Positions 234-23,361 of a DNA stretch of 33,382 nt are shown one piece after another. The notes below the pieces were generated by a model. That model saw only the letters and a program-made list of their open reading frames with translations, was not told where the DNA came from and searched no databases. The position numbers and the translations under genes are program-made. Position 1 is the first letter of the stretch, and the number at the start of each line of letters is the position of its first letter. The stretch spans positions 1 through 33,382 of the forward strand of contig DUVX01000094.1 of the NCBI GenBank assembly GCA_012840855.1, in the 5' to 3' direction. This DNA comes from Bacillota bacterium. Its GTDB lineage: Bacteria > Bacillota > Dethiobacteria > DTU022.

Positions 234-3200
234 TTACCTCAATAACATTTTTAAAAAATCAATTGCCTTCCGCCGGTTCAAAAGTTCATGGCAAAATTGG
301 TTCCGATAGTGACGAAGGCACCCATAGCAGCTGGTGTCCGCCTCATTACCGCCACAATCGCATCGTTCTAACCGGAGCAGTGCTGAATCTAACATCTTTT
401 TCAGGTTGCCTGTTTGAGCAATGCGGTGCGCATGGCCGGCACCGCCTGGAACATCGTCGAAAATAACTATAGCCGGCCTGGCCTGATTACCATCAAGGTG
501 ATAAAGTACGCCGTCCAGATCCTGTCTTTCAATATCCAATGCCTCACTGCACCCCTCCAACAAGGCGTAAAGCAGTGAATACCAGAATCCCCTATCTCCG
601 TTTTGGTACCCTTCGAAAATCAACAGGGCTAAATCGGTTTCAAACTCATGACCCAAAGAATAACCCCCATAAAGGGTCCCGTCGCATTTCCCGCCCCAGC
701 TTTGAGTATGATGTCCTGATACATTTTCATCCCCAATGAGAGTATATCCGCATCTGGTGCATATCTTAAATTTTCTTTTACCAGCATTATTGATAATCGC
801 CAATTTCCCATGGGTTGCGGAGGTAACCGCAAGAGTCATATCTTTTAATTGAACCCTAACCTTGTTGCTCGTGCTGGCATCCCCTGAATAATAGATGCGG
901 GTAGCATAAGTCTTTTCCGGCCTACGCTCACCAGGTGTAGCAGGCGCTTCCCAGCTAGCAATGAATCCATAATCAGGAACGATAAAAGTACCTCTGTTGC
1001 TTCCCGTCAGCGTATTTCCGCAATTGGCACATTGTCCTAATGACTGGTTGAATTCCGCTCTACTTCGTGTATAACTTTGACAATAGTCACAGATAGCATA
1101 GTGAAACCTTTCCCACTCCCAGCCACCTCCATCCTGCATTTTGGGAGAACGCTTGATATAACGGCTGGTCCATAGCTTTCCCCCGGCTACCACTTCACTG
1201 CTCGGAGCATACTCGGAAAGTGCAATCCGTAAGTCTCTTTGCAGCTCAAGGCGCTGCGCTTCTTCGCCATGATGAGTCAAAAGTAGCTCTACCACATCAA
1301 CAGGAAAACCGTACTTGGGAATGACATTGCGGCTAGATAAAAAATCTAGTAAAGGTTTCCTTTTTAGTGTCCGGATCAGTCTTAAAATATAATCGGAAGG
1401 TCTCTGCTCCCGTATGTGTTTATCCATAACCTGCTGCAACTGTTCAATATCTTTTACTATTTCCCGGTAAGCTTTCGCTAGAACTCCTTTCTCATTGTCT
1501 AACAGACCGTCTACCCAACCCCAGTTATCGATCTGTAATTTCTCGCGCAACTCCGGTGGCACAATGCGAATAAGAGACCTTTTTATATAATCAGGTTTTT
1601 GCTCGATGAAAGCCTGGAGGAGTACCGGCCCGGGCGGATCCGACAAAAAGAAGTTCGCGACTTTGCCAAATTTGTCTGCATGTCGCTTCCAGAAAGCCGC
1701 CAAAACCACTGCGTATAGATGCCGCCGCACTACCTTTTCATTAGCTATTTTAAAATAGGGCACTCCTATTTTACCAGCAACCATGCGCCACGGCTCCGCA
1801 AAATGGTTAAGGTCGTGAGAACGGCGTTGGGCAAAGGTCAGGGTAAAGGCAGTCGAGTCGGTGCGCCGGCCAGCGCGGCCAGCTCTTTGAACGTAATTAG
1901 CAGCGGAGGGAGGCACATTTCGCATGAATACCGCTTCTAACTCACCTACATCGACTCCCAGTTCAAAGGTGGTAGAACAGCTTAAAATGTTGACCTTGCC
2001 GCCAATAAAATCGGCCTGCAAGCCCGCCGCAGCTTGTCCAGTTAGCTGGGCGGTATGCTCTTCAGTTCTTGCCGCAAGGGGTAGTGTTTCTTTATAAAGC
2101 CTGCGATAATGGTTTTCAGCAAGGACGATATCCGGGTCACAATCCTCTAGGGTACCATCGCACCGGTAGCTGGGACAGGTTCCCCTGATATTGTGCAGTG
2201 TAATGCTGTGGCATTTGTTGCAGCGAAACCAGATAATTTCTTTATTGATTATTCCGGGCTGCAATTCCCAGAAATTATACCTGACCCTGTAAGCGGCTCC
2301 TTCCCCCTGGATATGATCCTGTACAAAGATATCTTTCCAGCAACTATGTGGGTTTTCAAGGGCGAGAGAACTATCCCAAAGACGCCGCAATGCAGTACGA
2401 CAATCATCAACGGAGATAGGGGCACCAATTTTATTTACAAGACGAGTCAGGTAGTCTAGTCGCGCGTTCATTCTCCCGCTGGCGGCGGAGCTCCAGCTAA
2501 AAATACCCTTTTTGCGTACAGCTTTATGTTCACGGAAATAGTACTCCCTGTTACGCGGTTGAAAAAAAACATCCGACGGCGCAGCATTGTCAGGAAACAG
2601 GACTGCTCCCTTCATCCTTAAGGTGTCAAGCAATACTTGAAAGAGTGTCCATACTTCATCACCTGATAAATTCCAAGGCGGACGCATCATAGCTGGAGGT
2701 GCAACCCAATGAGCCGGTTTCACAAGTGCAAAACCAAGTAGGCCCAGCCCTTCCAGGCTTAGTCTTCGATCAAAGCCCAAAAGTTCATACATAAGCCACT
2801 TCCAGATTTCATTGGTCTGCTCTTGATCACTCATTTCGGGAAAGAGGTTCAGCTCTTTAACTTTTCGCTGTAAAGGCCCAACCAGGTCTTGCAAATGCCA
2901 TTTATTCCCAATGACTTCGTTGCTGTGTTCCCTCAAAACCCTTATGATCAAGTTGCGCCGCAAAATCTGCAAGTAAGTCCGGTTGAAGTAAGGAGCAAAA
3001 AAAGCTGCATCCTGCCTGCTGTCCGAAAAAACCAACAACTTGCGGGCAGCTTCAAGCTGTAAGCCGCTTTCTCTGACTGATGGAGCCCGGGTACTGCTCC
3101 ATCCACCGTGTTTTTCTATTCGTTCATTCCGCGGATATTCGATCATCTTGGGCCTTATTTGCTGATAAAGAGAGGTGGCAAGTACACTGGCAGCTGCATC

Positions 3201-5102
3201 GGTACCCACGGAAAAACGCCTGAGCATCCCGTGGGGGGAAAACCGGCCACAAACGTGGCAGGTGGTCACTTTACCGGCCTTGGAAGGAAGGAGATATACC
3301 TCCTGAAAGGACGGTTTTTCGCAGCGGCACTGGAATAACAAAACATTACACTTGTCAATCTTGCCGCAACTAGCGCAAAGCTTATATCGTTCCAGATTGG
3401 CCAAATTATCGGCTGCGCTCTGAAATCCCACCTCTTCGTCTTCATCCAGCTCTTCCACTATTTCCGTATCTGCAGGCAGCAAATAGGTTGCCGATTGCCG
3501 ATCATCTTTCGGTTGGACAAAATAGTTTCCATCCTTTAAAAACTGAATTTCGCCAACTAGGTAAACGGCGCCGCACCCATGGCAAATAGCCAGCTCTACA
3601 ACCTGGTATTCAGCATCGGACTGCTTAACTTTTTCATGTCGCGCTAAAAAAAGCTGCTTTTGCGGTGCTAAACTGAGATAAGTCCCTTCTATAGCCCGGA
3701 CAAAGACGTGGTATCTTGCCGGTAACAAAGCTTGATCTTCTACACCTGAACGCGCCTTTACGGCCAGATTCACCAGTGCCGCCACCAGTCTGGCCGCACG
3801 CAGGTCCCCTGAATATTCTGGAAAAATATCGGCAGCCGCCTCGACAAGGTAGCGTGGTTCCTTCTCCAACTGTTTCTGCAGTTGAATTAAGTTAAGGTCA
3901 CCCTTTAAAACCTCGTAAATAAATAGAGAACTTCCGCGCTTAACCCCACATTTCGACTTCGCTTCTTTGAGAACTGAAACGGGGATTCCAGCCTTTTTCC
4001 CGCTTTCTATCAGTTGGTGAAGGATAGTGTCATCAGCGAAACCTCGGTCAACGATAGACTGCCAGTTAAGGTATACTTCCGGGTTGGGCCGCCCCCAGCC
4101 TCGCTTTTCCGGGGCCACCTTACGTCGTATAGCTCCAATTATGTCCTTATCAGTAAAAGTCTCTCCAAAGAGACGATTGGCAAACAAAGCCACACCACCA
4201 TAATCCTCCTCCCCCTGACCCAATGTAGCGCTTGTAGCTATACAGCGGAGCCTACCTGCTTCGCTATTCGCAACCCGGTCCTTTAACCTACGCAATAGCA
4301 TGGCAATTTCAATACCTTTTGCTCCAGTATAGGTGTGGACTTCATCGAGAACTAGAAAACGCCATCTGCTGGCATAAGGACCGTCAAAGAAAACATTATC
4401 CTGGGGCCTCAGTAAAAGGTACTCAAGCATTGCGTAATTTGTAAGCAGGATATGAGGCGGTTGGTCCCACATTTGTTCCCGCGAAATCATTTCGTTAGGT
4501 AAGGGCTCCTGCTTAAACATCTTCCTGTACAGATCTGCAGCTGCCTTTTGTTTCTTTTCCGTTTCTCCGGTGTATCGCCCGAATGTTATCTCTGGGCAGT
4601 TAGACAGCAACTTTCTCAATCGGCCTAGCTGATCGTTGGCCAGAGCGTTCATTGGATAAAGTAGTAGCGCCCGCACACCCTCGTTAAGTTTACCCTGTTC
4701 TTTTTGCTTTAAAAGGTGGTTAAGTATTGGAATCATAAATATCTCAGTTTTACCGCTGCCCGTACCTGTAGCCACGACAATATTGCGTTTGCCAGAGATA
4801 ATTTTACGTATTGCCATTTCTTGATGCCGATAAAGCGGCCTTTCCAGAGGCAGCGATTCGCTCGCCAAGAGCCTGAAGCTGTCGACCATTAGCCCCTCGT
4901 CAATTAAGTCATGCAAGGTAATATCCCCCATGAAGGGTGGTGTAGCCTCCAGGATCGGCCCCTTGACAAAACGTCCGGGCCTATACAGTTCCTGACGAAA
5001 CATTTTTCGCAAGCCTTCGTCACGAAGATGGAAAGTTGTGTCCAGGTAGTTTAGGTAACTGCGGTTTATTGCTTCAGTAGCTTTTATAGGATCTATACTC
5101 AC
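234..5102 (-). CDS. Giant DEAD/DEAH-box (DEVH) helicase with C-terminal DUF1998/MZB-type Cys4 module; DruE-like/defence-associated helicase
   Basis: 1622 aa; Walker A ATGTGSGKTE, motif II DEVH, SATL, motif VI VQRAGRAGRR; several CxxC knuckles; C-terminal DDVPGGAGHAHR...CDCGGNEADTSCYGCLRHYRNQFCH typical of DUF1998 helicases. GTG start with AAAGGAGG SD 7 nt upstream. Confidence 0.9.
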   Translation of the reverse strand: MSIDPIKATEAINRSYLNYLDTTFHLRDEGLRKMFRQELYRPGRFVKGPILEATPPFMGDITLHDLIDEGLMVDSFRLLASESLPLERPLYRHQEMAIRKIISGKRNIVVATGTGSGKTEIFMIPILNHLLKQKEQGKLNEGVRALLLYPMNALANDQLGRLRKLLSNCPEITFGRYTGETEKKQKAAADLYRKMFKQEPLPNEMISREQMWDQPPHILLTNYAMLEYLLLRPQDNVFFDGPYASRWRFLVLDEVHTYTGAKGIEIAMLLRRLKDRVANSEAGRLRCIATSATLGQGEEDYGGVALFANRLFGETFTDKDIIGAIRRKVAPEKRGWGRPNPEVYLNWQSIVDRGFADDTILHQLIESGKKAGIPVSVLKEAKSKCGVKRGSSLFIYEVLKGDLNLIQLQKQLEKEPRYLVEAAADIFPEYSGDLRAARLVAALVNLAVKARSGVEDQALLPARYHVFVRAIEGTYLSLAPQKQLFLARHEKVKQSDAEYQVVELAICHGCGAVYLVGEIQFLKDGNYFVQPKDDRQSATYLLPADTEIVEELDEDEEVGFQSAADNLANLERYKLCASCGKIDKCNVLLFQCRCEKPSFQEVYLLPSKAGKVTTCHVCGRFSPHGMLRRFSVGTDAAASVLATSLYQQIRPKMIEYPRNERIEKHGGWSSTRAPSVRESGLQLEAARKLLVFSDSRQDAAFFAPYFNRTYLQILRRNLIIRVLREHSNEVIGNKWHLQDLVGPLQRKVKELNLFPEMSDQEQTNEIWKWLMYELLGFDRRLSLEGLGLLGFALVKPAHWVAPPAMMRPPWNLSGDEVWTLFQVLLDTLRMKGAVLFPDNAAPSDVFFQPRNREYYFREHKAVRKKGIFSWSSAASGRMNARLDYLTRLVNKIGAPISVDDCRTALRRLWDSSLALENPHSCWKDIFVQDHIQGEGAAYRVRYNFWELQPGIINKEIIWFRCNKCHSITLHNIRGTCPSYRCDGTLEDCDPDIVLAENHYRRLYKETLPLAARTEEHTAQLTGQAAAGLQADFIGGKVNILSCSTTFELGVDVGELEAVFMRNVPPSAANYVQRAGRAGRRTDSTAFTLTFAQRRSHDLNHFAEPWRMVAGKIGVPYFKIANEKVVRRHLYAVVLAAFWKRHADKFGKVANFFLSDPPGPVLLQAFIEQKPDYIKRSLIRIVPPELREKLQIDNWGWVDGLLDNEKGVLAKAYREIVKDIEQLQQVMDKHIREQRPSDYILRLIRTLKRKPLLDFLSSRNVIPKYGFPVDVVELLLTHHGEEAQRLELQRDLRIALSEYAPSSEVVAGGKLWTSRYIKRSPKMQDGGGWEWERFHYAICDYCQSYTRSRAEFNQSLGQCANCGNTLTGSNRGTFIVPDYGFIASWEAPATPGERRPEKTYATRIYYSGDASTSNKVRVQLKDMTLAVTSATHGKLAIINNAGKRKFKICTRCGYTLIGDENVSGHHTQSWGGKCDGTLYGGYSLGHEFETDLALLIFEGYQNGDRGFWYSLLYALLEGCSEALDIERQDLDGVLYHLDGNQARPAIVIFDDVPGGAGHAHRIAQTGNLKKMLDSALLRLERCDCGGNEADTSCYGCLRHYRNQFCHELLNRRKAIDFLKMLLR

Positions 5103-8100
5103 GATAATCCTCCTTTCTTTTATAAAATCCGGCTTGTGACATCAACTGAATCCACTTCTTCTCCTGAGCCAGCAATTTTAATGCGAGTCCTTGGATATCT
5201 TTACGGGCTTCCGGTAGATCATCACCTAAATTTGCGCTCTTACTGTCAAACAACGGAATCCATTTTATGATCGGTAGGGCGTTGCTTACCTTCTGTAACC
5301 AGGGCCAAATATCCCATATCACCATCAATCTGGCTTTAATTGTACTGTAATTGGGAATAAAGCTCTTACATGAGGGGCTTTCCAGTATGCTGGAATGTTT
5401 GTACCAGGCTGCCGTGTTGGGTAAAAGTTTTCCACAGCCCGTACACAGAGCTCCGCTTTTAAGTTTTATGGTGATTTTTTTCTGGGCTGCATCAAATTCC
5501 AGCCTGGCTTCCTTACTGGTACCATCGGCCAACTGAAATGTGAAGAAGGCTTCATTGCGCCCTTCTTGTAAAGCTTTCACAATACTAACTCCATTGGAAG
5601 CACTAAGTAGAATGTCGTGCTGAAAATCTTTTGCCTCAGCAAGTTTCATTGTGGCAATATCACAACCGCCTAGCTGCATGGCCAGTCTGGTCTCGTTATC
5701 CAGGTAAAAATATAGGGGAGCCGGCTCGGGGATTACAGAGTAAATGTACGCAGCAGGCTCTGTCAGCGCCTTTATCCCAATCCAATGGGATACTTTTTTC
5801 TGAGCTGTAACAGTCGCCTGAAATAAACCGCTCACCCCAGTCGATGTTCTGCAGGATGAGTAAAACCAATCTCGCTTTTTTCTGCCGATAATCTTAATTT
5901 TGATGGGCAAGCCGTCTCCGCCGCCAGAGACCTTACCGCGAACCTGTAGTTTGTTGTCATCCAGCCACCGGGCCTCCCACCACGTTATATTAACAGGAGT
6001 ATCCAAAATCTCAGCTACAGCAATGTTAGTGACATTACCGGGGAAAACCGGCTTAGTATGGCTTGAGCTCCAGGGATCAATCAGGGCAAACTCCAGTACA
6101 TAAGATCCCGCGGGGAGTTCTTCCGCCTTAACCCTAATATCCATTTTACTTACCCCATCTGGAATAGGAAATTGTTTCACGGGTTCTAACCAGGGCCTAT
6201 TTTTGTCCCATAATCTTAACGTCCTACTCCCTGCCTTACCGAGATCCCTCCAGGATACAGCTAGATAACGCATCCCTTTTGATTTTTTTTGCCTGAAAGC
6301 AATGTCTTCAACTGTCCATGCTGCCCTTACCCGGAACAGCAAGCTATTTGCAATAATTTCATTAGTTTCCCGGCTCCTGATAGCTAAGCGAAAAGACGGC
6401 AACCCTGATCTGGCTTTCAGGGTATCGGTAAAAGGCAGCAAATTAAATTGAACCAATCCCTGTTTTATTTCTGCCTCGTACTTTTGTTCTGTTCCCTCTA
6501 TGAAAAGCTGGATGCATCCTTTCAAATAAAAGGGTACAGCGATAAAAAGGCACAGCTTTTCTGCATCGCTCCAATCGCCAATCCATATTTCACCAACGCC
6601 CTGGGACCAGAGGGCATGCAAACCATCACTTAGCCCTTCAATGCGCCAGCGAAGCCTAGGCACTTCAATGGATAGCGGCAAGGTAACAAGTACGTTTCCA
6701 CTTGTGCTCCAGCTCAGTTTGCCACTCACATAGCCAGCTGACTGCTCTGTTGATACCATAAATTTATTATTCAGCACTTTTTGCAGCTTTGCCGGTGAAT
6801 TCACCTGGAAGGAAAAACCCTTTGGGCAGCGTACAGAAAGCTCAACGGGCTTTTTTTCTCCATCAGGGATATATAGAGCAGACGAAAAAACTGATTCAAA
6901 CTCGGATATAAAAATAACATCAAAGCGATATTTATGTTTTTCTGGGCTCAACAGAGTAACCGTGTAGCGGCCGCATGGTTCTTCCCCCAGCAGTGAGGCC
7001 TGATCTAAGGGCAAACTTAGCGCAAGTTCATCTTGCTCCGGCAAAACCAGCTCACTCAGTAAGCATTTCTTTTCTTCTCCCGGATAACCGGCCCTGGGCC
7101 TGGAATAAACCTTCCATTCATCCATCCCATCGCACACTTCTTGGGGCAAAAGAACCATTACACTACCCTTCAGATAAAGAGGATTGTTATCATCAACTAC
7201 TACACCAGCGATCCTTTGACCCTCCAGGCGTGGGGTCATCAGCGCATCTTCACTTAAAGTAAAACTATGTCCTACTCCTTCTTTATCTACGATGCATAAC
7301 AGGTCTTCATTAATTGTTTTCAAATCTACCAGCTGCAAGCGGCAGGGTTCAGATAACTGGGCAGAGTTTTCTTCTAAGGGCCTGACCATTGGCCTTATAT
7401 AGTAGCCCATCGGCAAAAGAAACCAAACTCTCTCACGTAACAGGGGCTCACCTGACACCACGCTGCCGTATTCATCAAAGATCAAAAAGGGTAGGCCATT
7501 AATGGATATGGGTATTTGCCAGGTCCGCAGTACTTCATTACCCAAGCCTAAGGTCAATTCAATTGTACCGCCCAGTTGAGAAACGGGGAAAATAGCCGGT
7601 TCGCTTTCACCAAGATCTGCTTCCTGTAAATAAACTTTCAAGGGGTGCCTTACTATTTTCCTTTCATCAGTAATATGACTTATTTCTACCCAGGCTTCGT
7701 TTAAACCGGATAATTTAAACCTTTGCCGGGGCAGGTAAATGCAAGGGCTGCCAGCCCGATCAAGCTTTAGTTCCGGGGATAGTATCCTTGTCCTGGTCAA
7801 ACCTTGAGCAACACTTATGCCGGTTGATTTGGACTGCCGGTCATCCCACCACCGAAAAAAAGCATCTACCACCCTTGATGGCAGCGACTGGCCAGTACTC
7901 ATGGGGAGAGCTTTCCCGGCCATCGTTTGAGCAGTCAAAAGTACAGACTCATAGAGCCATTCCCCAGCCCATTCCTTACCGTAGAGGATAAAGCGTCGGA
8001 TCGGCTTGTCCAGGTAGAGAAGGGGCCTGGATACGCTTTGTAGCGCGCTTTCGCTCCTTAAGAACTCCCTTGTTTTTTCTTCACATAGTGATTTTAGTTT

Positions 8101-10023
8101 GCGAAACAGAGTGAGCAGCTCCTCCAGGCTGTGAGCCTGCAATTCATCAGTAAAGCCTTGCTCCTCTTCTACAGTCAGTTCGCGCTGCAGCTCTTTAATG
8201 CGGCTGCGCCTCAAACGTATTTGACTTAATAGCTCAGCCCCGCGCTGCAAGTCACCATCTCCCAGTATGCAGAGAGCTTGATCTAGTTTGTTGATTTTTT
8301 CTTGAATATTCTCTCTTTCAGCCTCCAGCCCATTCAATTCTTCTTTGTAGTCGCCGAGCCTCGATTCAGCTTCTTCAGCTTGCTGTTTTTTATCAAAGGC
8401 TTCGTTAATAGACCTTTGAACATAGCTCAATGTTTTTTCCAAATTTTCTCCATCCAGATCAAGGCTACCAGGTGTAAACGTAGCCGCAGTTTCAGCTACG
8501 CTTTGTTTCCAGGTTCTAAGGCGTTTTTCTGCTTTGGTTAGCCGATCTGTTATATCAAGATATTCCGCATATTCTTTGCACAGTGTATTCACTATAGCCT
8601 TTATTTCTCCGGACGGTTTACCCCAAAAGGACACCCCAGGGGTATATAAATTTCCTGCCAGTCGGTAAACTTTTGCTCTTAGTTCGGACATTGGAAGCTG
8701 CAATTGAACAAATTCCTGCGTTATAATTTTAAGCCGCCTTGCCCGTTGTGTCGCTAGCCTGTTATCGAGCAGACAGCGATGCCAGGCAAGCCCCAAGAGA
8801 GTAAGTCCAGCGGCCGGTATAAGCCATAGAATTGGCCGAGATGGTAGCACAACAGAGAAAATAGCCCCGGCGATAAGCAATGGTAAACTGGGCCAAAAAA
8901 GTAAACTTAACCGGACCGGTTTAGGGTCAATGCTTGATATTTCTTTTTCTTTTTCCGACAGCCTGTCCCACAACTTGGCGCCTTCATCCAAACTGGCAAG
9001 CAGTTCAACCCAACAGATTTCCTCTAGCATGGCTTCGAACTGATCAGGGTCGGATCGCTCTGCTTCCATTTCTCTGAGACAACACTGCAGTTTTTCGATA
9101 CTCCACTGGCTCTTTTCCCAAAGGCAGGTTATACTTTTTTCTACTTCAGACAGCTCTTCTCTATACACCCGCATTAGTTCTTCGACGTCCCCCGCCGCCC
9201 TGACAATCAAGCTATCTTCCTGATCATAGTTTTCAATGGCTCCTAAGCATTCCGAAATTTGCTCATTTATTGTTGTTTGTTTTGATTGAATGACCGCCAG
9301 TTCCATCAGCAATCTTTTCCGTGTTTTTTCGTAGTCATCGGGAAGCTCTACAGCAAGCCCCTGCAAGAAACCAAGCTGCCTTTGCAATTCATAATCTTCT
9401 TTTTTAATTTTTAACAGTTTCTCAACCCGAGCTTGTTTTTTTTGCAATTGAATCTGTTCTTCTTTTAACTTTTGATTAACCCTGACAAGCTTATGGTTTT
9501 TATTTTCCAATGCCCTCAAATCAGACAGGTATGCTTTGACATCATCCTTATCGATTAAGTCCCCCATAACGACAGGCTGAATTAACTGATCGAAATACTC
9601 ATACAAACAACTCTGGGGTATGCCGCCGTGCAACAAAATGTTGGCAACATATTTGTGGGCTTCAGGGATTTCAATGACAGGTTTTTGCCGCTGCTTTAAA
9701 AAATCAATGAATTTTTGCCCTACCCTAGTCTGCCAGTTTGGTTCATTTAAACCAACAAAATCAGCCAGCGTGGTCCAATAATCACCTTCATTGTAAAAGT
9801 GAATTCCATGGCCCACCAGGTAACAGGCCAGGGTAGCAGGAGTGTTTTCTGTTAAATACTTAACTCCTTGAGGAAGGTTGTCCTTTAAGCGCTCCTTGAC
9901 TAGCGCGCTCAGTTTTAAAACTTCCTCTTTGCTAAGTTCAATTTGGCCGATAAACTCTACCCTGCCGACAGGCTCAACCAGCGCTTTTTCACATTCAATC
10001 AAGCTTGAGCAATTATTTAGCAT
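5074..10023 (-). CDS. Giant uncharacterised protein (~1649 aa): N-terminal globular domain, coiled coil, TM hairpin, second coiled coil, beta-rich region, C-terminal CxxC...C zinc-knuckle-like motif; partner of the helicase
   Basis: ORF track runs 5074..10074, but AGGTGA SD sits immediately upstream of the second Met (10023). Two hydrophobic helices (LSLLFWPSLPLLIAGAIFSVVL / ILWLIPAAGLTLLGLAW) between K/E/L-rich heptad regions; CTGCGKLLPNTAAWYKHSSILESPSC near C-terminus. 29-nt overlap with downstream helicase. Confidence 0.8.
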   Translation of the reverse strand: MLNNCSSLIECEKALVEPVGRVEFIGQIELSKEEVLKLSALVKERLKDNLPQGVKYLTENTPATLACYLVGHGIHFYNEGDYWTTLADFVGLNEPNWQTRVGQKFIDFLKQRQKPVIEIPEAHKYVANILLHGGIPQSCLYEYFDQLIQPVVMGDLIDKDDVKAYLSDLRALENKNHKLVRVNQKLKEEQIQLQKKQARVEKLLKIKKEDYELQRQLGFLQGLAVELPDDYEKTRKRLLMELAVIQSKQTTINEQISECLGAIENYDQEDSLIVRAAGDVEELMRVYREELSEVEKSITCLWEKSQWSIEKLQCCLREMEAERSDPDQFEAMLEEICWVELLASLDEGAKLWDRLSEKEKEISSIDPKPVRLSLLFWPSLPLLIAGAIFSVVLPSRPILWLIPAAGLTLLGLAWHRCLLDNRLATQRARRLKIITQEFVQLQLPMSELRAKVYRLAGNLYTPGVSFWGKPSGEIKAIVNTLCKEYAEYLDITDRLTKAEKRLRTWKQSVAETAATFTPGSLDLDGENLEKTLSYVQRSINEAFDKKQQAEEAESRLGDYKEELNGLEAERENIQEKINKLDQALCILGDGDLQRGAELLSQIRLRRSRIKELQRELTVEEEQGFTDELQAHSLEELLTLFRKLKSLCEEKTREFLRSESALQSVSRPLLYLDKPIRRFILYGKEWAGEWLYESVLLTAQTMAGKALPMSTGQSLPSRVVDAFFRWWDDRQSKSTGISVAQGLTRTRILSPELKLDRAGSPCIYLPRQRFKLSGLNEAWVEISHITDERKIVRHPLKVYLQEADLGESEPAIFPVSQLGGTIELTLGLGNEVLRTWQIPISINGLPFLIFDEYGSVVSGEPLLRERVWFLLPMGYYIRPMVRPLEENSAQLSEPCRLQLVDLKTINEDLLCIVDKEGVGHSFTLSEDALMTPRLEGQRIAGVVVDDNNPLYLKGSVMVLLPQEVCDGMDEWKVYSRPRAGYPGEEKKCLLSELVLPEQDELALSLPLDQASLLGEEPCGRYTVTLLSPEKHKYRFDVIFISEFESVFSSALYIPDGEKKPVELSVRCPKGFSFQVNSPAKLQKVLNNKFMVSTEQSAGYVSGKLSWSTSGNVLVTLPLSIEVPRLRWRIEGLSDGLHALWSQGVGEIWIGDWSDAEKLCLFIAVPFYLKGCIQLFIEGTEQKYEAEIKQGLVQFNLLPFTDTLKARSGLPSFRLAIRSRETNEIIANSLLFRVRAAWTVEDIAFRQKKSKGMRYLAVSWRDLGKAGSRTLRLWDKNRPWLEPVKQFPIPDGVSKMDIRVKAEELPAGSYVLEFALIDPWSSSHTKPVFPGNVTNIAVAEILDTPVNITWWEARWLDDNKLQVRGKVSGGGDGLPIKIKIIGRKKRDWFYSSCRTSTGVSGLFQATVTAQKKVSHWIGIKALTEPAAYIYSVIPEPAPLYFYLDNETRLAMQLGGCDIATMKLAEAKDFQHDILLSASNGVSIVKALQEGRNEAFFTFQLADGTSKEARLEFDAAQKKITIKLKSGALCTGCGKLLPNTAAWYKHSSILESPSCKSFIPNYSTIKARLMVIWDIWPWLQKVSNALPIIKWIPLFDSKSANLGDDLPEARKDIQGLALKLLAQEKKWIQLMSQAGFYKRKEDYREYRSYKSY

Positions 10024-19813: not shown

Positions 19814-22237
19814 TTACAACTCCACGACGTTCCCGCCCAGCAGAGCGGCTGTGCCCGGATCGCAGGTGGTGATGATCAACTGCTTCTCGCGGGCGAATTC
19901 TTGCAGTACGGCAGCGGCCTGCGCCTTTCTCTCCGGATCGAGGTAGACCAGGGGATCATCCATAACCATGAAACCGCCGGCGCCGGCAAGGAGGTATTCG
20001 GCCGCAGCCAGCCGCAGCGCCAGTGCCACCCCACCGGCTGTACCGGTGGAGAGCAGCTCCACAGGCAGCGCGCCTCCCGCTGCCCGGATGATACTGCCCG
20101 GAACAACGCCCGCCATCTCCGCTGCCCGGTAGCGGCCGCCCGTTACCGGGCCGAGATAGCGGCCAAAAGAACGGGCCAGCGGCTCGTACGTCTCGCCATC
20201 CAGCTCTTCTTTTAACGCCCGGAACTCAGCCTCTACAACAGTGAGCGCCCGGGCCTCTTCCCTGAGCCGATCAAATTTTTCCCGGCTCGCAGTGAAAGCC
20301 TCTTCCAGATCTTCCGAGCTCTCCTCCGGCAGCGTCTCTCTTACCCGGACCAGCTCAAGTTTCAACCCGGTTAATCTATCTGTAAGGCTTTTTTTCAGAT
20401 CATCCAGCTTTTGCAGCGCAGCCATGAACTCCTCAGCGGAAGCGTAGCCCTCCGGCAGAGGAGCCAGTTCCTTAAGCTCTGCGGTGATCTGCCCGGCTCT
20501 TCTTTCCAGTTCGCCCAGCTCTTCAGCCAGCTTTTCGGGGGTGCCGTGTTCTTCAGTCCATACTGTAATCTTCTGCCTTTCCTGATCAAGCGTGCTCCCG
20601 TCCGCAGCGATGGTACTGCTCAGGTCGTTAATCTCCTCCTGAATTTCTCTGAGACTGCGCACCTCTTTTTCTTCCGGCAACGCTGCCACCTCCCGCTCCA
20701 GCGCGGAGAAGTCAATCTCCCCCAAAAGGTCGCTCAGCCGATCCTGCAGACTTTTCTGTTCCTGCCGAAGACTCTCGCGCCTGCTGAAGGCGGCTTCGGC
20801 CGCCGCGATATCCGGCACTGCCAGCGACTTCAACTTCTCTTCTATCAATTTTTCCGCCCGCTCGATCTCGCCGAGCAGGCTTTCGACATCGCCCTCGCCC
20901 GATTGAATCTCCAGGGTCCAGTCGTCGCTCTCTAAGATCAGGCGGCCCGCTCCCTCGAAGAGGCCCTCCTGCTCTATTCTCCTACTTTCAGCCTGCTCTA
21001 GACCCGAAGTTATCCTCAGCTCGAGCGGTTTGCGCGCGGTAAGACGCGCCTTCAGTTTCATCGCTTCCACACGGGTCCTGCACTCGCCCGCCCGTCTCCG
21101 CCATTCTTTCAGATCGCGCAGCTCATCCCGGCCTACCGGAGCCAACCCGGCAGATTCCTTCTCGTTTTCGCCCATCTTGCGGCGCAACGGCCGGGCCTTT
21201 TCTAGCAGTTCGCGCTTCTGCCGCGCAGCCCGCTGCTCTTCTGACCTAGCAAGTTCTTTTTGAAGGGAGGCAAGCTTCTTTCGATCCGCCTCCAGGCTTC
21301 CAGACAGCTGGTCGACCCTGCCTATGGTTTTGGGCCAATCAACGATCACCTTTCTCAAGGCTGCTGTTTTCACTTCAACCGTCTCCAGTTGCGGCTCCAG
21401 GACGCTGCGCCGCCGGACATCTTTTTCCAAAAGTTTCATTTTTGTCAGCCGCCCCGCCGCTCCAGCCTCTTTTTCGGCTGTCTCCGCCAGCTCCCCGGCC
21501 AAATCGTCAACCCGTTTCTCCAACTCCCTGGCCTGCTGCAACCGCCGCCGCAACCTTTCGCTCTCATAGTACGCCGCCAGCAGCCGCCCCTTCCTTCGCT
21601 CGTAGGGGTGGTCGATGCCGCGGTTGTTCTTGGGGCCGTCCCTGACCGGATCCCAGTTGCTCAAAAGATCCTTCAAAGCCTCCGCAATGGCTTTCTCCAG
21701 CTTTTCCACCGAAACCCCGCCGGCCTCGATGACCGTCCGCCGCAGGATTCCCGCTACCGTTTGCACTGCCTCGTCGTCCTCGCGCAGGCTCTCCAGGGTG
21801 CGCTCCATCTCATCCTGTCGGGCAAAAAGCACCGCCTGGTAGGTGCCCCTCCCGTAGGAGAGCGCCTGCTGCAGCCGCTCCCGGACCGCGGCGGGGTTGT
21901 TGATCTCAGCGCCGCTCTCCAGCAGCAGCTGCGCCTCCCTAATCTCTCCCCAGGAGCAGCTGTAGGTGCAGCACTCCTCATCGCCGCAGCGGTAGCGCAG
22001 CCTTACCCGAGCGGTGTCGCCGCCGGGATGGGGCAGGCACCGCCCCAGGAATTCTTTCCAATCCCGCGAACTTTTCCTCACATCGGGGGGCAAAAATAGA
22101 ACGGCGAAGAGAGCGTTGACCAAAGTGCTCTTGCCGGCCTCGTTGGGGCCGAGGAGTACATTCAACCCCGGCTCGAAGCGATAGAGCGCCTCCTTAACGC
22201 CGCCGAAGGGGTTCAATTGAAGTTCTTCGATGATCAT
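19814..22237 (-). CDS. SMC/Rad50-like AAA ATPase (YhaN/SbcC-like)
   Basis: 807 aa; Walker A LLGPNEAGKSTLVNALF, long coiled coil, signature LSTGTAGGVALALRLA, Walker B GFMVMDDPLVYLD. Confidence 0.88.
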   Translation of the reverse strand: MIIEELQLNPFGGVKEALYRFEPGLNVLLGPNEAGKSTLVNALFAVLFLPPDVRKSSRDWKEFLGRCLPHPGGDTARVRLRYRCGDEECCTYSCSWGEIREAQLLLESGAEINNPAAVRERLQQALSYGRGTYQAVLFARQDEMERTLESLREDDEAVQTVAGILRRTVIEAGGVSVEKLEKAIAEALKDLLSNWDPVRDGPKNNRGIDHPYERRKGRLLAAYYESERLRRRLQQARELEKRVDDLAGELAETAEKEAGAAGRLTKMKLLEKDVRRRSVLEPQLETVEVKTAALRKVIVDWPKTIGRVDQLSGSLEADRKKLASLQKELARSEEQRAARQKRELLEKARPLRRKMGENEKESAGLAPVGRDELRDLKEWRRRAGECRTRVEAMKLKARLTARKPLELRITSGLEQAESRRIEQEGLFEGAGRLILESDDWTLEIQSGEGDVESLLGEIERAEKLIEEKLKSLAVPDIAAAEAAFSRRESLRQEQKSLQDRLSDLLGEIDFSALEREVAALPEEKEVRSLREIQEEINDLSSTIAADGSTLDQERQKITVWTEEHGTPEKLAEELGELERRAGQITAELKELAPLPEGYASAEEFMAALQKLDDLKKSLTDRLTGLKLELVRVRETLPEESSEDLEEAFTASREKFDRLREEARALTVVEAEFRALKEELDGETYEPLARSFGRYLGPVTGGRYRAAEMAGVVPGSIIRAAGGALPVELLSTGTAGGVALALRLAAAEYLLAGAGGFMVMDDPLVYLDPERKAQAAAVLQEFAREKQLIITTCDPGTAALLGGNVVEL

Positions 22238-23361
22238 TTTTTCACCTCACCGATCAGCCGATAGGCCAGCTGCAGCGCGGCGGGGTCGTCCTTCTTCGCC
22301 AGCCGCGACAGCAGGCGCTGCGGAAAGGATCCGGCAGAGAAATGGGTATCGATCAGCTCCGCCGACAGCTCCACCGCCAGGGTGCTGTCATCCTCTTCTA
22401 AGTAAAGCAGGTTCGAACGAAGCTCGTCGAACCAGAGGCGGCGGGAACGGTATCTCTCCTCCGGTAAAAAACCGGCCAGGCTCAGCTTCACCAAGGCCCG
22501 TCTGCCGGCCTGCCGCAGCTCCTCCGCAAGATTATCCAGATCGGCTTCTCCTTGAAGCTGCCGTGATAGATCCATGAAGCGATAGGAACCGGTGGAAAGA
22601 GCGCAGCATTCGGCCTGCCCCCCCTCGTCAAGGGTAATGACCCAGGCACTGCCTCCATGGCGGCAATCGAAACCGTCGGGCTCGGGCGTGCCGCTGAAGC
22701 AAAAACCCGCTCCCTGTACCCGGTCCAGATCGGGATAGCGCACATGAGTATGCCCTAGGCACCAGTGGTGCAAGCCAAGGGCGAGCAGCTCTTCCTCATC
22801 CATGGGGAAATACTGCTCTTCCGGATCGGGCGAGATCCCCCGCACGGTGCCATGAGCCACACCGATGTGCCATTTTGCCGGGGGGCGTTCCGCCAGCTCG
22901 CGGATCCAGCTGAGCCTGTTTTCCCGGGATCGCTTCCGGTGGCAGGGCGCGGGGTAGAGCACCGCATCGATGCCGTAATCCTGAAGCCGTAAGGGTGCCG
23001 TGTCGGTCAGTAAAAGCAGCGAGTCCGGAGCCAGCTCGCGCATCTCCTTCCAGAGGCCTCCAAAGCCGTCGTCGTAATCGTGGTTGCCCGGCAGGATGGC
23101 GACACAGCCACCCTGGAAACGGGAGAGCGCCTCCACCGCCCAGACGACAGCCTCCGGAGGCATCTGGGCCCGGTGAAAAAGGTCCCCCGCCACCACAAAA
23201 AGCTGGCACTGCGCTTCATTGGCCTGCTCCACCAGCCGCTCAAGCGTCTCATAGCGTGCCTCGATGAGCCGCCGGCGCACCCCTTCGGGATAGGGGCGGT
23301 TGCCGAAGGTCATCCCCAGATGTAGATCAGCGGTATGAAATATCTTTAAAGTGATCTTCAA
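22234..23361 (-). CDS. Metallophosphoesterase / DNA repair exonuclease (YhaO/SbcD-like)
   Basis: 375 aa; FHTADLHLGMTFG, VAGDLFHRAQ, LPGNHDYDDGF, GVAHG, CLGHTHVRY phosphoesterase motifs; ATGA overlap with the downstream ATPase gene. Confidence 0.9.
   Translation of the reverse strand: MKITLKIFHTADLHLGMTFGNRPYPEGVRRRLIEARYETLERLVEQANEAQCQLFVVAGDLFHRAQMPPEAVVWAVEALSRFQGGCVAILPGNHDYDDGFGGLWKEMRELAPDSLLLLTDTAPLRLQDYGIDAVLYPAPCHRKRSRENRLSWIRELAERPPAKWHIGVAHGTVRGISPDPEEQYFPMDEEELLALGLHHWCLGHTHVRYPDLDRVQGAGFCFSGTPEPDGFDCRHGGSAWVITLDEGGQAECCALSTGSYRFMDLSRQLQGEADLDNLAEELRQAGRRALVKLSLAGFLPEERYRSRRLWFDELRSNLLYLEEDDSTLAVELSAELIDTHFSAGSFPQRLLSRLAKKDDPAALQLAYRLIGEVKK

What the first reader, a model, noticed from the sequence alone, without database searches (positions are those of the whole stretch)
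234..10023. Two-giant-gene putative defence locus next to tRNA-Lys: TM/coiled-coil protein plus DUF1998 helicase
Seen: two overlapping (29 nt) minus-strand genes of ~1649 and 1622 aa, the second an intact DEVH helicase with a C-terminal Cys4 module, on the 3' side of a tRNA gene and visibly AT-richer than the metabolic genes from 11 kb on. Established: DUF1998 helicases are hallmark subunits of DISARM (DrmA/DrmB) and Druantia (DruE); type III Druantia is a two-gene DruH-DruE module in that order. Inference: this is a Druantia-III-like or sister anti-phage system. The large partner has features (TM hairpin between coiled coils) I do not associate with characterised subunits, so it may be a new subtype.
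Basis: partly seen in the sequence, partly recalled or inferred. Interest (0 to 1): 0.85.

Follow-up and report, generated by a model that had tools for sequence, protein, structure and literature searches.

The report
Membrane-hairpin variant of Druantia defence pair
Two giant neighbouring bacterial genes form a two-protein anti-phage system related to a known one called Druantia type III, but the likely phage-sensing partner belongs to a family that the standard PADLOC detection models miss and, in this lineage, carries a long coiled-coil arm with a probable membrane anchor.

Summary
Two minus-strand genes overlap by 29 nt: a 1649-aa protein (5074-10023) and an intact 1622-aa DEVH/DUF1998 helicase (234-5102), beside a tRNA-Lys cut by the contig end. 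The helicase is a DruE (PADLOC DruE1 E=2e-192), distinct from the genome's own MrfA-like helicase. No PADLOC, Pfam or PHROG model recognises the partner, yet a homologous gene lies directly upstream of DruE in 70 of 75 related loci with room to show it. The family includes mycobacterial pairs that match published mutant residues of the tested M. smegmatis 'type III Druantia'. Profile-profile comparison links it to E. coli DruH (97%, E=2.5e-11; reversed and shuffled controls fail). So this is a Druantia III-like (probably 'III-B') DruH-DruE pair without a C-terminal nuclease on DruE. The unusual part is a ~500-aa coiled-coil insertion between the DruH-like N-terminal domain and the Ig-like domains, with a transmembrane hairpin conserved in about eight lineages and absent from M. 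smegmatis-type and E. coli DruH. Best reading: a membrane-tethered, phage-sensing DruH licenses a DNA helicase. Anti-phage activity of this pair and membrane insertion are inferred, not shown. A new variant of a known kind.

The parts
234..5102 (-). druE-like gene, 1622 aa SF2 (YprA family) DEVH helicase with DUF1998/MZB, no C-terminal nuclease domain (27 aa after the last Cys motif)
4215..4829 (-). DruE RecA1/DEAD domain (residues 92-296)
   Evidence: Pfam PF00270 E=3e-25
1863..2072 (-). DruE Helicase_C stretch (residues 1011-1080), running into motif VI QRAGRAGRR (1072-1080)
   Evidence: Pfam PF00271 E=2.6e-9
315..569 (-). DruE DUF1998/MZB zinc-binding domain with Cys4
   Evidence: Pfam PF09369 E=4.8e-14
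5109..5114 (-). Shine-Dalgarno-like AGGAGG of druE, inside the upstream gene
   Evidence: sequence
5074..10023 (-). druH-like gene, 1649 aa (ORF open to 10074), upstream of and overlapping druE by 29 nt
9565..10023 (-). N-terminal helical domain (residues 18-170 of P0002), aligned with the N-terminus of E. coli DruH; HGGIP motif
   Evidence: hhalign; pLDDT mostly above 90; alignment
7990..9564 (-). coiled-coil insertion (residues 171-695), about 37 aa in most family members outside this clade and absent in E. coli DruH
8779..8904 (-). predicted transmembrane hairpin (residues 391-432) flanked by basic residues
5734..7773 (-). tandem Ig/FN3-like beta-sandwich region (about residues 768-1447)
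   Evidence: model m570a7b7f75a9, Foldseek matches to multi-Ig/FN3 proteins
5368..5445 (-). C-terminal C2HC zinc-finger-like motif CTGCGKLLPNTAAWYKHSSILESPSC (residues 1544-1569)
   Evidence: sequence; similar motif in G074, L055, L057/L067 and shorter forms in L039, L042, L121
1..73 (+). 3' part of tRNA-Lys (anticodon CTT), cut by the contig end
   Evidence: sequence

Best explanation
This is a two-component DruH-DruE (Druantia type III-like, probably 'III-B') anti-phage pair with a probably membrane-tethered variant of DruH. The DruH-like protein would sense infection through its Ig-like domains, probably by binding a phage structural protein. Its coiled-coil arm and TM hairpin would hold it at the inner membrane, with both ends in the cytosol. 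On activation it would license DruE, a DUF1998 (probably 3'-5') helicase, to engage phage replication intermediates and block replication. DruE lacks the PLD nuclease of E. coli DruE, so cutting, if any, must come from DruH or host nucleases. Shown here: the gene pair, conserved pairing, intact helicase motifs, homology to DruH, family match to mycobacterial pairs of the tested type, and the conserved hairpin. Inferred: anti-phage activity of this copy, the trigger, membrane insertion and the order of events.
For: DruE identity: PADLOC DruE1 640 bits, DruE3 548; the tree places it in a two-gene clade apart from E. coli III-A, ARMADA and type I. Pairing: 70 of 75 DruE loci with room have the partner family (one of the 70, L070, is a minus-strand hit that is probably spurious); about 12 of those were outside the HMM's training set; 13 of 14 partner hits in a phylum sample sit beside DruE, the 14th at a contig edge. 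Link to a tested system: a mycobacterial DruE of 1668 aa has K119, A292, R823, A1016 and C1516 at the published positions, and one partner matches 6 of 11 published DruH residues at one constant offset (shuffled p=0.004) (PMC13316683); window partner vs such a partner E=6e-11. Homology to E. coli DruH: hhalign 97.3%, E=2.5e-11, score 108.7 vs 16.6 reversed and at most 14.7 shuffled. Ig-like string fits the Ig-like domains reported for DruH (PMC13192584). Hairpin: 0 of 300 shuffles in the window protein, same place in about eight lineages. Patchy presence.
Against: PADLOC's DruH models do not hit this protein, though they do hit E. coli DruH. DruE lacks the III-A nuclease. Some family members stand without DruE (G074). 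The hairpin rests on hydropathy, and the N-part model is of low confidence there. Foldseek did not list DruH itself. No attachment repeat, and no other defence gene was recognised among the window genes scanned.
Confidence: 0.8

Rival explanations
1. An ordinary soluble Druantia III-B pair: the hydrophobic hairpin is a buried hinge or elbow of the coiled coil, not a membrane anchor.
For: Hairpin absent in close relatives with the same insertion (L056, L128); coiled-coil elbows exist in SMC-type proteins, which head the Foldseek matches of the N part.
Against: Two charge-free segments of about 17 residues with basic flanks recur at one place in about eight lineages.
Confidence: 0.35
2. A DNA-repair or genome-maintenance pair (MrfA-like) rather than phage defence.
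For: YprA/MrfA relatives act in repair (PMC12458937); the coiled-coil region resembles Rad50/SMC arms.
Against: The genome has a separate MrfA-like helicase; the pair is patchy and falls with DruE; a phage carries the same kind of gene pair.
Confidence: 0.08
3. A system of its own that shares DruE by gene shuffling, with the partner only coincidentally like DruH.
For: No significant direct match to E. coli DruH by phmmer or the family HMM; PADLOC DruH models fail.
Against: Co-linear profile alignment over about 700 columns with clean controls; same gene order, overlap and overlapping size range.
Confidence: 0.12

Closest known systems
M. smegmatis type III Druantia (MSMEG_1253 DruH 1132 aa, MSMEG_1254 DruE 1667 aa; PMC13316683)
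   Same: Gene order with overlap, two components, DUF1998 helicase of similar length; partner family inferred from residue positions in near relatives
   Different: Comparable mycobacterial partners are about 1100-1145 aa with no coiled-coil insertion and no TM hairpin
E. coli Druantia III-A (DruH PDB 9tud, DruE 2104 aa; PMC13192584)
   Same: DruH-DruE order; remote DruH homology; DUF1998 helicase
   Different: E. coli DruE carries PLD domains; its DruH is recognised by PADLOC and has no coiled-coil or TM insertion
Druantia III-B / III-like branch of Bell et al. 2025 (PMC12458937)
   Same: DruE-like helicase, most often no nuclease domain
   Different: Their representative GIH50614.1 was not available here, so identity of the branch is likely but untested; the words transmembrane and DruH do not occur in the paper's main text
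ARMADA and Druantia types I/II
   Same: YprA-family helicase with DUF1998
   Different: Need BrxHII/PglX-like genes or DruA-D/DruMFG, none recognised here

Membership tests
Druantia (any type) | DruE helicase (SF2 with DUF1998) | tested here: met
Druantia type III | two-gene module with a large DruH-type gene directly upstream of druE | tested here: met
Druantia type III | partner recognised by existing DruH models (PADLOC DruH3) | tested here: not met
Druantia type III | partner homologous to DruH (YjiT/STY4851 family) | tested here: met
   remote, by profile-profile comparison with controls
Druantia type III-A | DruE with C-terminal PLD nuclease | tested here: not met
   27 aa after the DUF1998 Cys4
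Druantia type III-B (Bell et al.) | DruE in the III-B branch, usually without nuclease | tested here: inconclusive
Druantia | anti-phage activity | not testable with these tools
   shown for M. smegmatis by others (PMC13316683), not for this copy
DISARM | DrmA with separate DrmB, plus methyltransferase | tested here: not met
   single fused helicase; only weak DrmA matches
[quoted passage not shown]
   no such gene among the window genes scanned; the contig ends just beyond druE
MrfA/YprA housekeeping helicase | about 750-aa DUF1998 helicase of the repair branch | tested here: not met
   separate copy at G000:C162; tree

The most novel reading that the evidence does not exclude
A membrane-anchored Druantia: DruH is tethered to the inner membrane by a hairpin at the end or elbow of a long coiled-coil arm, so that infection is sensed, and DruE recruited, at the site of phage DNA entry or particle assembly rather than in the cytosol.
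Probability: 0.4. Interest if true: 0.65.

Novelty: new variant of a known kind. Interest (0 to 1): 0.5.

Why it matters
The two-gene DruH-DruE branch is present in about 9% of sampled genomes of the window's phylum and also occurs in Actinomycetota, Chloroflexota, Bacteroidota and a Ruminococcus phage, yet its DruH half is missed by PADLOC's DruH models. Linking it to E. coli DruH and to mycobacterial pairs like the tested one gives one framework for a much larger set of systems. A membrane-hairpin subgroup would make it directly testable where Druantia senses infection, and comparing DruE proteins with and without nuclease domains would test where DNA cutting comes from.

Tried and rejected
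Direct phmmer and family-HMM searches of E. coli DruH against the partner family gave nothing significant; only profile-profile comparison did. Foldseek of the N part gave no match better than E=0.03, headed by coiled-coil proteins. Foldseek of the C part gave multi-Ig/FN3 proteins with low TM-scores and not 9tud among the listed matches; whether 9tud is in that library (entries to 8 April 2026) was not established. Plasmid tblastn with P0002 gave no match. Scans of viral contigs failed four times because the machine gave no answer. An attachment repeat of the tRNA-Lys 3' end was sought and not found. Direct comparison with the M. smegmatis MSMEG_1253/1254 sequences was not possible; published residue positions in near relatives were used instead. 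The first relatives tried (L081, L084, L088) did not show the match, and L155-L157 were then chosen by DruE length.

Full report
What is there. The window is one whole contig (G000:C25) of a fragmented 1.88-Mb genome, 92% complete. Two minus-strand genes fill 234-10023. The downstream gene is a 1622-aa helicase with all key motifs (GTGSGKT, DEVH, TSATLG, QRAGRAGRR) and a C-terminal Cys4; Pfam finds DEAD, Helicase_C and MZB/DUF1998. The tRNA-Lys at 1-73 is cut by the contig end.

The helicase. PADLOC's best match is DruE1 (E=2e-192), then DruE3 and DruE2. The best solved relatives are 9tu7 and 9wae, well above YprA/MrfA. The genome has a second, MrfA-like DUF1998 helicase elsewhere, so this is not the housekeeping copy. 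In a tree of 93 helicases it lies in a strongly supported group of 12, mostly from Bacillota metagenomes, inside a large two-gene clade, away from E. coli III-A, ARMADA and type I (FastTree, several long reference branches, so the deep order is unsure). DruE ends 27 residues after the Cys4, so it has no C-terminal nuclease.

The partner. It matches nothing in PADLOC, Pfam or PHROGs. A scan of reference genomes with the DruE alignment gave 80 loci. In 70 of the 75 with room, a member of the partner family was found, nearly always directly upstream of DruE; one of the 70 (L070) is a minus-strand hit and probably spurious, two (L133, L094) lie further upstream, and about 12 were not used to build the HMM. 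In a separate sample of 299 genomes of the phylum, 26 carry the family (the sample includes the window's genome and two relatives seen before), and 13 of 14 inspected have DruE beside it, the 14th at a contig edge. None of the three other same-genus genomes has it, and nine relatives show no such pair beside the neighbouring saccharopine-dehydrogenase-like gene; some of those contigs end close by. The pattern is patchy, as expected of transferred defence genes.

Link to tested systems. M. smegmatis 'type III Druantia' was shown to block phages, with mutated residues listed (PMC13316683). In Mycobacterium genomes chosen for a similar DruE length, one DruE of 1668 aa (published: 1667) has K119, A292, R823, A1016 and C1516 at exactly the published positions, and a partner of 1145 aa matches 6 of 11 published DruH residues at one constant offset (p=0.004 against shuffles). 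Earlier, less similar relatives did not show this. The window partner matches such a partner at E=6e-11. This makes common family membership very likely, not certain.

Link to E. coli DruH. Direct searches fail, but profile-profile comparison of ten DruH-type sequences with 67 partner sequences gives 97.3%, E=2.5e-11, score 108.7, co-linear over about 700 columns. The reversed profile scores 16.6 and ten column-shuffled profiles at most 14.7. Subfamilies taken alone score lower (48%, 6%, below 1%), as expected of remote homology, so the link leans on the deep combined profile. The predicted C-terminal part is a string of Ig/FN3-like sandwiches, in line with the Ig-like domains reported for DruH (PMC13192584).

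The unusual part. Between the N-terminal domain and the Ig-like region the window protein has about 525 extra residues, mostly coiled coil; most members outside its clade have about 37. Inside it sits a hydrophobic hairpin (residues 391-432), flanked by basic residues. It recurs at the same place in about eight lineages and is matched by 0 or 1 of 300 shuffles in all but one of them (13 of 300 for L055). On the DruE tree it is concentrated in one group of ten, needing at least three to four changes; one apparent absence (L225) is a truncated protein. Comparable mycobacterial and E. coli partners lack it. By the positive-inside rule both ends would be cytosolic.

How it probably works. By analogy with E. 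coli and M. smegmatis, DruH senses a phage structural or late protein and DruE acts on phage DNA intermediates (PMC13192584, PMC13316683). Here DruE lacks a nuclease, so cutting must come from DruH (E. coli DruH dimers nick DNA) or host enzymes. The hairpin would place sensing at the membrane. These steps are inferred.

Limits. Anti-phage activity, membrane insertion and trigger are untested. Bell et al. (PMC12458937) had already noted a Druantia III-like branch, most often without nuclease; that this is the same branch is likely but untested. Viral contig scans did not run. Low GC is not decisive because 26-33 kb is equally AT-rich.

Noticed in passing
L235:3245-10668 (Ruminococcus phage NatCom_28274, PV036439.1): A phage genome carries a DruH-like (916 aa, HMM E=3.5e-74) plus DruE-like pair between endolysin and exonuclease genes: a phage-borne copy of this kind of pair.
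   Followed up: partly
L038:4473-9278 (G074); L040/L041 (G071): Partner-family proteins with the coiled-coil and hairpin architecture (intact in G074) and no DruE found next to them or, in G074, anywhere in a 75%-complete genome: possibly orphan sensors.
   Followed up: partly
L043:6273-9353 (G124): The DruH-like N-terminal domain (39% to P0002 17-120) is fused to a BrxH/SngC-like helicase in one protein.
   Followed up: no
L064:5933-9973: Ktedonosporobacter DruH-like protein with a C-terminal domain matching PADLOC MzaA (E=8e-56).
   Followed up: no
L039:5750-9628: A homologue of the window partner matches PADLOC candidate family C3a139 'HKD+Snf2' over its full length (E=5e-52), so the family had been seen as an unnamed candidate.
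   Followed up: no
L049, L050, L127, L129, L133: Cyanobacterial DruE of about 2100 aa preceded by two genes (about 790-970 aa and 310 aa); the larger one in L133 matches the partner HMM (6e-24): a three-gene form.
   Followed up: partly
window 19814-23361: Rad50/SbcC-like ATPase (807 aa) next to an SbcD/Mre11-like nuclease (375 aa).
   Followed up: no
G001:C293: A same-genus genome has a fragment of a different DruE (51% identity) filling a 1.5-kb contig.
   Followed up: no
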